NCBI GenBank assembly: GCA_017528825.1
Contig: JAFXOI010000023.1
Coordinates: forward strand, 1-64,000
Length of the DNA: 64,000 nucleotides
Origin: Elusimicrobiaceae bacterium
GTDB taxonomy: Bacteria > Elusimicrobiota > Elusimicrobia > Elusimicrobiales > Elusimicrobiaceae
Direction of reading: 5' to 3'
This document shows, piece after piece, positions 59,542 to 62,403 of the stretch. The position numbers and the translations under genes were made by a program. Below the pieces are notes generated by a model that worked only from the letters and a program-made list of their open reading frames with translations, searched no databases and was not told the origin of the DNA. The first letter of the stretch is position 1; every line of letters starts with the position of its first letter.

Positions 59542-60444
59542 ATGAAAGAAAACGTACGGACATTGGCGGCGGATTTGAAAGCTTTTTTAGCTAGCCGGCA
59601 AGAAGATGATCTAATACCGGCGGCCTTTTCTCAGGCCGCCGCGTTTGTTCCGTCAGATACGCCCAAGCCAGATACACTTGCACAGCAGGATCATTTGACG
59701 GTAGAGTTTGTCCGTGCGGCTAAGCACCCTGCCACAACTTCCACAAAACAGACGCCCGTTACAGCTCAAACCATATCGGAAAGTTCATCCCCCGTCAATG
59801 AGGAGAAAATGCCTATGTCTGATGTCCAAACTGCTTTAGATCAAATTGCCAAAGAAATTCATGAATGCCGCCGTTGTCCGTTAGGAAACAGTCGTTTGCA
59901 TGCTGTACCCGGCGAGGGTAATCCCCACGCGCAGCTCATGTTTATCGGGGAAGGCCCCGGCTTTGACGAAGATCACCAAGGACGTCCTTTTATCGGGCGG
60001 GCAGGGCAATTATTGGATAAAATGATTGTGGCAATGGGGCTGAAACGTGAGCAAGTATTTATCGCCAACATTGCCAAATGTCATCCCATGATTCATCCGG
60101 AAAATCCGGAAGCGCACGGCAATGATCGCGCTCCCAATGCCGGCGAAATCGCCGTATGCCGCAAATTTATTGAACGTCAGATTGCAGCTATTTCTCCCAA
60201 ATACGTGGTCGCGTTGGGCGGAGTGGCAGCCAAAGCTCTTATCAGCGATACCAAATCATTAGGGGCCTTGCGTGGGCAATTTCACCTCTTGCATTTAGAC
60301 AGCGTAGAATTAAAAAAACCCGTCAAGATTTTGGCCACCTATCACCCGGCAGCCCTATTGCGCAATCCAAATTGGAAAAAGGATGCTTGGGCGGATTTAC
60401 AGATGGTTATGGCAGAGATGGGGCTCAAGCGTCCTAATGCCTAA
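59542..60444 (+). CDS. Type 4 uracil-DNA glycosylase
   Basis: The C-terminal 200 residues match iron-sulfur uracil-DNA glycosylases (family 4): cluster cysteines in CRRCPLG and later KCHP and VCRKF; the catalytic-site motif GEGPGFDEDHQGRPFIGRAGQ (in part); and TYHPAALLRNP at the end. It removes uracil from DNA. The first ~95 residues are a Gln/Pro/Thr-rich extension without known domain, so the protein (300 residues) is about 100 longer than usual. It starts three bases after rpoZ and lies just before priA. Confidence 0.9.
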   Translation: MKENVRTLAADLKAFLASRQEDDLIPAAFSQAAAFVPSDTPKPDTLAQQDHLTVEFVRAAKHPATTSTKQTPVTAQTISESSSPVNEEKMPMSDVQTALDQIAKEIHECRRCPLGNSRLHAVPGEGNPHAQLMFIGEGPGFDEDHQGRPFIGRAGQLLDKMIVAMGLKREQVFIANIAKCHPMIHPENPEAHGNDRAPNAGEIAVCRKFIERQIAAISPKYVVALGGVAAKALISDTKSLGALRGQFHLLHLDSVELKKPVKILATYHPAALLRNPNWKKDAWADLQMVMAEMGLKRPNA

Positions 60445-60447
60445 TAT

Positions 60448-62403
60448 ATGTATTGCAAACTTGTCTTTGATGTTCCGCTAGATAGAGATTTTGATTACGC
60501 TATACCGCCCGAGTTGGCGCCGCAGGTGCATCCCGGCATACGCGTAACAGCGCCGTTTGGACGAATGCTCACAACCGGCCTGGTAACCTCCGTCTCACAA
60601 GAAACAACTTTACAAAAAAACATTGTCATTAAAGAAATTGCCAGTGTTCTAGATGATAAACCACTCTTTGGGTCAGACTTATTTCCCTTAGCTGATTTTA
60701 TTAAAAAAACTTGGGGTGGCCCCATCGGACAAATTCTGTTTTCTCTTATTCCGCCGCAGGCTTATTTCAAACGGCTCGAAAGTGTTACTCCTCCCCCCTT
60801 TATCCCAACGGTGGCGTCCCCCACCTTATCGCAAGATGACAGCGCAGCTTTACACGTTTTATCGGGCAAATTATTCACAGGATTTCAACGCGTTTTACTG
60901 ACTGGCACCCAAACAGAACGTTCCCGTGAAATCATTTTACAATTGGCCGAGCAGGTACTTCAAAATTACGGGCAAGTATTGCTCACATTACCGGATGTAT
61001 GGGCCGCCCAACAGGAAACCCTGCGTCTGCAAAAACGCTTTGGGGCACAATGGGTTTTAGGCTGGCATAGCAAAATGTTATTAAGTCAGAAAAAGCAAAT
61101 TTTTTCTCATATTTCCAACGGCCTTCCCGTCGTAGTTGTATCGGCACGCTCCGGAGGATTGCTCCCTTTCAAAAATCTACGTTTAGCTGCCATGCTGGAA
61201 GAAGAAAATGAAAATTATAAACAAGAGGAAAATAAACCCTATTTTCACCTGCGTGAAGTACTAGATTTCCGGTGTCGGTGCCATGAAGCCCTATTTATTA
61301 CATCCTCGGATACACCCAGTTTGGAAAGTATTTTTACCCTCTCTCGTGCCAAGGCCTCTTCTTTTTCTTTAACTGAGGCAAAAACAGGGGCCGCCCCCAT
61401 ACAAATCACCGCTAAAAAAGGTACTCGCTCTGCATTACTGAGTGATGAGTTGATTACTGTCTTGCAAGACCGCCTAACCAAACAGCAACCCTCTCTTTTA
61501 CTGCTAAACCGCCGCGGCTATTCCAATGCGTATTATTGCTTAAATTGCGGTGCTTATGCGAAGTGTGAAAAATGCGGTTCCATTCTAGCACGTGAAAAAA
61601 TCGGAGATACGGATCAATTAATATGCAAAAAATGCGGTCACAAAGAATCTTTAGAACAAACTTGCCCGCAATGCAAAAATAAAATTTTCAAATCTCGCGG
61701 AGGCGGTACTCAAAAAATTGTTACGGAATTACAAAAACTTTATCCTACCGCCCGTATTTTGCGCTTAGATTCGGATACGTTGAAAAACAAAGATGGTCAA
61801 GGGCACCAAGTACATCGAGCTTTACAGCAGGGGCAGGTAGATATTGTTGTGGGTACTCGCCAAGCTTTATCCTGTATTCAAGACCCGCGCATTACGTTTG
61901 CCGCCGTACTGGATGCGGATTTAGAACTAGATACGCCGGATTTTCGGGCTTCTGAAAACTTTGCGCAGTTGCTATTTAAACTAAAAAATTATTTATCCAC
62001 ACGCAAAAACGGTTTATTAATCATACAGACATCTTCCGCAGATATTTTCCCATTTCAAACCTTACACCACGATTACAACATATATGCGCAAGAAGAACTT
62101 TTAGCACGAGAGAGTTTTGCCTACCCTCCCTTTGTACAGCTGATAAAAGTATTGATAAAAAGCAAAGATATGACACTCTTACAATCGGAAACTTCCCGTC
62201 TAATGACTGCCGGTGCGCCTATAAGTTTGGAAGTTTTGGGGCCCGTAAAAACCGGCAAAAAAACAGACGTGTTAAAAAAACAATATGTTTTATATAAAGT
62301 TTCAGCCGAACAGTACCCCCAGTTAATTCATCTCTTGGATTCTTGGCAGGCGACTAAAAAAGTAGATATCAAAGTTACTGCCGATCCCTATGATTTTTAC
62401 TAA
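60448..62403 (+). CDS. priA: PriA-family protein with degenerate helicase motifs
   Basis: The 651-residue protein aligns along its length with primosomal protein N' (PriA), which restarts stalled replication. The DNA-binding N-terminal domain (LVFDVPLDRDFDYAIP) and all eight zinc cysteines (364, 367, 373, 376, 393, 396, 406, 409) are present. The ATPase motifs are not. At the Walker A site (GVTGSGKTE in active PriA) it has GTQTERSRE (153-161, no Lys). At DEEH it has LEEENENYKQ (250-259), and motif V is GTRQALSCIQDP (469-480). The QVAGRAGR motif VI region reads LLFKLKNYLSTRK. It is probably a structural restart protein without helicase activity, as in actinobacterial PriA. Confidence 0.9.
   Translation: MYCKLVFDVPLDRDFDYAIPPELAPQVHPGIRVTAPFGRMLTTGLVTSVSQETTLQKNIVIKEIASVLDDKPLFGSDLFPLADFIKKTWGGPIGQILFSLIPPQAYFKRLESVTPPPFIPTVASPTLSQDDSAALHVLSGKLFTGFQRVLLTGTQTERSREIILQLAEQVLQNYGQVLLTLPDVWAAQQETLRLQKRFGAQWVLGWHSKMLLSQKKQIFSHISNGLPVVVVSARSGGLLPFKNLRLAAMLEEENENYKQEENKPYFHLREVLDFRCRCHEALFITSSDTPSLESIFTLSRAKASSFSLTEAKTGAAPIQITAKKGTRSALLSDELITVLQDRLTKQQPSLLLLNRRGYSNAYYCLNCGAYAKCEKCGSILAREKIGDTDQLICKKCGHKESLEQTCPQCKNKIFKSRGGGTQKIVTELQKLYPTARILRLDSDTLKNKDGQGHQVHRALQQGQVDIVVGTRQALSCIQDPRITFAAVLDADLELDTPDFRASENFAQLLFKLKNYLSTRKNGLLIIQTSSADIFPFQTLHHDYNIYAQEELLARESFAYPPFVQLIKVLIKSKDMTLLQSETSRLMTAGAPISLEVLGPVKTGKKTDVLKKQYVLYKVSAEQYPQLIHLLDSWQATKKVDIKVTADPYDFY

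What the first reader, a model, noticed from the sequence alone, without database searches (positions are those of the whole stretch)
60448..62403. PriA homologue whose ATPase/helicase motifs are all lost but zinc and DNA-binding parts are kept
Aligned by eye to E. coli PriA, Walker A lacks the Lys and the Gly-rich loop (GTQTERSRE). DEEH is EEEN. Motif Ia VPEIGLTPQ is LPDVWAAQQ, GSATPALE is SSDTPSLE, and motifs V and VI are changed. The eight zinc cysteines and the LDADLELDTPDFRASE and YPPF regions remain. The frame is intact over 651 codons, so this is not decay. Actinobacterial PriA is known to have lost helicase motifs; a parallel loss here would mean replication restart without PriA helicase activity.
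Basis: partly seen in the sequence, partly recalled or inferred. Interest (0 to 1): 0.75.

Follow-up and report, generated by a model that had tools for sequence, protein, structure and literature searches.

The report
PriA restart protein without helicase motor
In a whole order of gut and environmental bacteria (Elusimicrobiales), the protein that restarts stalled DNA replication has lost the ATP-burning motor parts of its sequence but kept its DNA-gripping parts under selection; the same loss happened at least twice more within the phylum, which makes the group a natural test of what that motor is for.

Summary
The gene at 60448-62403 is the only priA in a ~95% complete Elusimicrobiaceae genome (nearest named relatives: Ca. 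Avelusimicrobium / Elusimicrobiales MAGs). In detail: P-loop, motif II, most of III, V and VI are gone; motif IV, all eight zinc cysteines, the 3'-DNA-binding domain and the C-terminal domain remain. It is not a local quirk. The catalytic set (P-loop GxxxxGK[ST]; motif II Asp-Glu; both motif VI arginines) is complete in 50/50 PriAs sampled from motor-keeping lineages of Elusimicrobiota and in 0/99 scorable PriAs of the order Elusimicrobiales. Sublineages broke different pieces; the window's lost them all. An rpoB tree gives at least three independent losses in the phylum (one-clade hypothesis rejected, AU p=1e-7), plus cases in tiny Endomicrobium-type genomes. Close pairs show dN/dS about 0.05-0.2, so the protein is used. 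No second PriA, PriC or DnaD was found; DnaB, SSB with a canonical tail and the loader DciA are present. Best reading: a PriA pseudohelicase that recognises forks and serves as a DnaB-loading platform without unwinding, a kind already proven for Deinococcus radiodurans (PMC4504706); here it is a new, recurrent instance. Activity itself is untested.

The parts
60448..62403 (+). priA pseudohelicase gene, 651 codons plus stop
60463..60753 (+). 3' DNA-binding domain (3'BD), residues 6-102, kept (F-D-Y and PFG motifs)
   Evidence: PF17764 71.4 bits, cut-off 22.7; conserved columns kept at 97% in the order
60904..60930 (+). remnant of motif I / Walker A: G153-TQTERSRE (E. coli GVTGSGKTE); Lys -> Ser
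60988..61014 (+). remnant of motif Ia: LPDVWAAQQ (E. coli VPEIGLTPQ)
61195..61209 (+). remnant of motif II: LEEEN (E. coli DEEHD); metal-binding Asp -> Leu
   Evidence: motif II Asp 0/58 in the genus
61213..61248 (+). NYKQEENKPYFH, directly after motif II, strongly conserved in the genus although motif II itself is lost
   Evidence: N-Y-K-Q invariant in 49/49 rows of the genus scored
61303..61326 (+). altered motif III: SSDTPSLE (E. coli GSATPALE)
61504..61521 (+). motif IV LNRRGY, intact
61537..61674 (+). cysteine-rich region, 8 zinc Cys kept (C364, 367, 373, 376, 393, 396, 406, 409); the helicase-lineage His455 and His464 of this region are replaced (Glu383, Lys394)
61852..61881 (+). remnant of motif V: GTRQALSCIQ (E. 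coli GTQMLAKGHH)
61939..61956 (+). DFRASE motif, kept
61978..62001 (+). remnant of motif VI: KLKNYLST (E. coli QVAGRAGR); both arginines lost
   Evidence: ungapped count from the conserved Glu572
62065..62400 (+). C-terminal domain (approximate borders), kept, incl. YPPF and GP motifs
   Evidence: conserved columns kept at 98% in the order, window 8/8
59542..60444 (+). family-4 uracil-DNA glycosylase, 3 bases upstream of priA; neighbour conserved across the order (gmk - udg - priA - tyrS)
   Evidence: same order of genes in L184, L185, L186

Best explanation
The gene encodes the orthologous PriA of the cell, turned into a pseudohelicase: it keeps the fold and the parts that recognise a stalled fork or D-loop (3'-binding domain, zinc region, C-terminal domain, ssDNA path) but cannot hydrolyse ATP or unwind the lagging strand. 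SHOWN by sequence: orthology, loss of catalytic residues, retention of the DNA-binding parts, purifying selection, order-wide distribution, absence of a second PriA. INFERRED: (1) no ATPase/helicase activity; (2) it works as a structure-specific scaffold that binds forks whose lagging strand is already single-stranded and brings in DnaB, with DciA rather than DnaC/DnaT/PriB as the loader partner; (3) any lagging-strand opening needed is done by another helicase.
For: Only PriA in the genome and one PriA per genome across the family. Catalytic set complete in 50/50 motor-keeping relatives and 0/99 Elusimicrobiales. Conserved columns are retained at 97-98% in the 3'BD and C-terminal domains but 57-66% in the two helicase lobes, and all 8 zinc Cys stay. 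dN/dS 0.05-0.2 in pairs with moderate dS. Conserved gene neighbourhood gmk-udg-priA-tyrS. DnaB, SSB ending EDDVPF and DciA present; no PriC or DnaD. E. coli PriA ATPase is not needed for PriA-PriB-dependent restart in vivo, and the ATPase-dead K230A variant loads DnaB in vitro (PMC10175261). D. radiodurans PriA lacks ATPase and helicase yet binds forks and DnaB (PMC4504706).
Against: No biochemical data. Many relatives (40/56 in the genus, most of genus code g15, genus code g6) keep a perfect P-loop, so some ATP binding or weak turnover elsewhere in the order is not excluded; the window's own protein still has motif IV and the motif II Glu. The hand-off to DciA is not shown: DciA is also present in relatives with an active-looking PriA. 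The AlphaFold model is weak (mean pLDDT 61, N-terminal 103 residues below 50).
Confidence: 0.8

Rival explanations
1. The protein still binds nucleotide or turns it over slowly with a rearranged site, so it is a weak or regulated motor and not a dead one.
For: A strict P-loop persists in a sister subclade of the genus (31/31, at mean pairwise identity 68%) although motif II Asp is Leu there; genus code g15 keeps P-loop and both motif VI Arg; motif IV is intact in the window.
Against: In the window protein the P-loop Lys, the motif II Asp and both motif VI Arg are all gone; K230R or K230A alone abolishes E. coli PriA ATPase. Lys -> Gln in 10 of 18 rows of the window's clade shows the site is being discarded.
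Confidence: 0.08
2. The gene is a dying remnant (early pseudogene) and restart is done by something else.
For: PriA evolves faster in motor-less lineages (mean PriA identity 0.33 against 0.47 in most keepers at rpoB identity 70-75%).
Against: Frame intact in all complete copies over the order, dN/dS 0.05-0.2, zinc Cys 8/8 in 101 of 102, present in every genome of the family searched (90/90).
Confidence: 0.04
3. The protein was recruited to a new function (e.g. fork sensor or repair scaffold, possibly tied to the neighbouring uracil-DNA glycosylase) unrelated to loading DnaB.
For: udg lies 3 bases upstream in the window and next to priA in all three relatives inspected.
Against: No other restart initiator was found (PriC, DnaD absent) and the domains that bind forks and SSB-coated DNA are the ones conserved; neighbouring genes such as gmk are housekeeping, so the neighbourhood is not specific.
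Confidence: 0.07
4. Assembly or annotation artefact (chimeric contig, wrong frame).
For: MAG source.
Against: Same changes in about 100 independently assembled genomes and nine public contigs.
Confidence: 0.01

Closest known systems
Deinococcus radiodurans PriA (Deinococcus-Thermus PriA pseudohelicase; PMC4504706)
   Same: Only PriA of the cell; motifs I and II degenerate; DNA-binding parts kept; no PriB or DnaT in the genome; shown there to lack ATPase and helicase while binding forks and DnaB.
   Different: Different phylum. There the P-loop Lys is Arg; here Ser in the window, Gln, Lys or Arg in relatives. Here the losses form a graded series with intermediates, and motif VI is the element broken most uniformly.
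Actinobacterial PriA (PRK14873 / NF011453 group)
   Same: A 2005 survey calls the actinobacterial ortholog smaller and very divergent.
   Different: The window scores higher with the ordinary PriA models (357 bits NF004066, 309 bits TIGR00595) than with the actinobacterial ones, far below their cut-offs, so it is not a member of that group. No actinobacterial sequence was aligned here.
E. coli / Klebsiella PriA (active helicase)
   Same: Homologous over nearly the full length, 3'BD, zinc region and C-terminal domain; same fold matches.
   Different: Has motifs I-VI, ATPase, 3'-5' helicase, and works with PriB, DnaT and DnaC, of which PriB and DnaT were not searched for here.

Membership tests
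PriA (primosomal protein N') ortholog | Full-length match to the PriA family model over its cut-off | tested here: met
   TIGR00595 308.8 bits against 230.35
PriA (primosomal protein N') ortholog | PriA-specific 3'-binding domain | tested here: met
   PF17764 71.4 bits against 22.7
PriA (primosomal protein N') ortholog | Eight zinc-binding cysteines in the helicase lobe insertion | tested here: met
   8/8
Active PriA helicase (SF2 ATPase) | Walker A GxxxxGK[ST] | tested here: not met
   GTQTERSR
Active PriA helicase (SF2 ATPase) | Motif II Asp-Glu (DExH) | tested here: not met
   Leu-Glu
Active PriA helicase (SF2 ATPase) | Motif VI QxxGRxGR arginines | tested here: not met
   KLKNYLST
PriA pseudohelicase (as in D. 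radiodurans) | PriA ortholog with degenerate motifs I and II, kept under selection, sole PriA of the genome | tested here: met
PriA pseudohelicase (as in D. radiodurans) | No ATPase or helicase activity of the purified protein | not testable with these tools
   needs biochemistry
PriA pseudohelicase (as in D. radiodurans) | Binds fork DNA and the cognate DnaB | not testable with these tools
   needs biochemistry; DnaB gene is present

The most novel reading that the evidence does not exclude
Motor loss in PriA is a recurrent evolutionary route, taken at least three times within one phylum, possible because the DnaB loader there is DciA; sublineages that keep a conserved P-loop after losing motif II and motif VI use nucleotide binding, without hydrolysis, as a conformational switch of the fork-bound PriA.
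Probability: 0.2. Interest if true: 0.75.

Novelty: new member of a known kind. Interest (0 to 1): 0.5.

Why it matters
PriA's helicase is dispensable in E. coli in the laboratory yet conserved in most bacteria, so what it is for is an open question. Elusimicrobiota hold, side by side, lineages with a complete motor and at least three lineages that threw it away in steps, with living intermediates (P-loop and motif II intact with motif VI broken; P-loop and motif VI arginines intact with motif II broken; Lys to Arg; everything gone). That allows comparative and biochemical tests of which step kills unwinding and what cells gain or compensate. It also adds a phylum to the one case proven by experiment.

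Tried and rejected
Second PriA: the four weaker TIGR00595 hits in the genome score 26-59 bits, below the cut-off, and lie in open frames of 1048, 701 (two) and 676 aa, lengths that fit Mfd, RecG and UvrB. PriC and DnaD: no hits while the control genomes ring. DnaC/DnaI (IstB family): in the own genome only partial hits inside longer frames of 890 and 469 aa, so no dedicated loader of that type. First definition of motif II by a 'DE' pattern was misleading: in part of the genus LDEG is shifted by one residue, so column-based counts were used. The gapped alignment at motif VI hid that genus code g15 keeps both arginines (GRLNR); recounted without gaps. DciA as the discriminating correlate of motor loss: present in both keepers and losers, so it permits but does not explain the loss. 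AlphaFold model from a 10-row alignment was too weak for active-site geometry (mean pLDDT 61), only good enough that the nine best PDB matches are PriA. One attempt to submit the report was incomplete and was not accepted.

Full report
WHAT IS THERE. The ORF at 60448-62403 (+) has 651 codons, starts with ATG three bases after the end of a family-4 uracil-DNA glycosylase gene and has no internal stop. It is a PriA ortholog: TIGR00595 308.8 bits (cut-off 230), the PriA-specific 3'-DNA-binding domain at 71 bits (cut-off 22.7), and only PriA chains in a PDB sequence search. The gene neighbourhood gmk - (small ORF) - udg - priA - tyrS is shared with relatives in the same genus, another genus of the family and the sister family. 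The genome is an Elusimicrobiota MAG-type assembly of 1.53 Mb, 95% complete; named relatives at 62-64% identity over the protein are Elusimicrobiales, among them Ca. Avelusimicrobium.

THE OBSERVATION. Motif IV (LNRRGY) is intact and Glu remains at the second position of motif II, so 'all lost' is slightly too strong. The eight zinc cysteines, the DFRASE motif, YPPF and the 3'BD signature are kept.

DISTRIBUTION. Of columns at least 94% identical in 51 motor-keeping PriAs (86 columns), the order Elusimicrobiales retains 97% (3'BD) and 98% (C-terminal domain) on average but only 66% and 57% in the two helicase lobes; the 15 most completely lost columns are largely motif residues. Two further residues invariant or nearly so in motor-keeping PriAs, Arg380 and His455 (the latter in the zinc region), are absent from all 102 Elusimicrobiales sequences. 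Scored as a set (P-loop, motif II Asp-Glu, both motif VI Arg), 50/50 PriAs of other Elusimicrobiota that keep the motor have all three, and 0/99 scorable Elusimicrobiales do. The pieces that are broken differ: genus code g15 keeps P-loop and both arginines but lost Asp-Glu; genus code g6 (G042, G260) keeps P-loop and DEE but lost the last arginine; codes g2 and g11 have Lys -> Arg as in Deinococcus; the window's clade of 18 rows replaced the Lys in 11 (10 Gln, 1 Ser) while its sister subclade keeps a perfect P-loop in 31/31. Parsimony on a PriA tree built without the motif columns gives one change for strict motif VI and eight for the P-loop. Because different residues are hit, several parallel steps after an early loss of motif VI function is the likeliest order of events, but parallel losses from an ancestor with a weakened motor cannot be excluded.

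RECURRENCE. An rpoB tree of 54 Elusimicrobiota genomes plus E. coli places motor-less PriAs in three separate places: Elusimicrobiales; the clade of family codes f19, f20, f21, f25; and f17 next to the Endomicrobia-like lineages. Minimum changes: three; holding all losers together is rejected (AU p = 1.2e-7, quick tree, simple model). Two very small Endomicrobium-type genomes (G197, G209), nested by taxonomy among keepers, add one or two more. In f19, PriA is so divergent that three members also lost part of the zinc cysteines.

IT IS IN USE. dN/dS in pairs with dS below about 0.8 is 0.05-0.2. PriA is found in 90/90 genomes of the family. It does evolve faster than in keepers at equal rpoB divergence, as expected when the constraint of catalysis is gone.

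GENOMIC SETTING. No second PriA, no PriC (0/30), no DnaD-type domain (0/15), no dedicated DnaC/DnaI in the own genome. DnaB is present, SSB ends in EDDVPF, and DciA is present about 2 kb from a 469-aa frame that the IstB model hits weakly and that I take to be DnaA. PriB and DnaT were not searched for.

MECHANISM. Established knowledge: in E. coli, fork binding swings the zinc region of PriA and forms a pore for lagging-strand ssDNA that leads to PriB docking; [quoted passage not shown] D. radiodurans PriA has no ATPase or helicase but binds fork DNA and DnaB (PMC4504706). By analogy, the window protein most likely recognises forks or D-loops with an already single-stranded lagging arm and serves as the platform for DnaB loading, here with DciA. 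Loss of ATPase is a strong inference; the platform role is a moderate one; the DciA hand-off is a guess that fits the gene content.

NOVELTY. PriA pseudohelicases are known. New here are the phylum, the recurrence, and the graded series of intermediates; a search of the open literature found no report on Elusimicrobiota PriA, but subscription journals were not searched. I file it as a new member of a known kind.

Noticed in passing
L017-L034, L085-L092, L095, L098-L100, L103, L104 (sister subclade of the genus): The P-loop GxxxxGKT is invariant in 31/31 sequences at mean pairwise identity 68% although motif II Asp (Leu/Phe) and motif VI are gone: nucleotide binding without hydrolysis may still be selected.
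   Followed up: partly
L178, L181, L183 (family code f19): PriAs that lost not only the motor motifs but also part of the eight zinc cysteines.
   Followed up: partly
L150 (G197), L160 (G209): Endomicrobium-type genomes of 0.4-0.5 Mb with PriA frames open but motifs I, V and VI broken, while relatives of the same genus code keep the motor.
   Followed up: partly
G206, G208, G212: Genomes at 90-95% completeness in other orders of the class have neither a PriA over the cut-off nor a PriA 3'BD hit; could be assembly gaps.
   Followed up: no
G150, G212, G227 (family code f5): All three sampled members of this family lack a DciA hit while their sister families have one; the loader there is unknown.
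   Followed up: no
window 61213-61248: NYKQEENKPYFH just after the lost motif II is more conserved than the motif itself; the position matches the DNA-sensing loop of active PriA, suggesting it still contacts DNA.
   Followed up: partly
L184 1656-2258 and 8316-8855: Type IV pilin-like genes on both sides of the priA region in relative G036.
   Followed up: no
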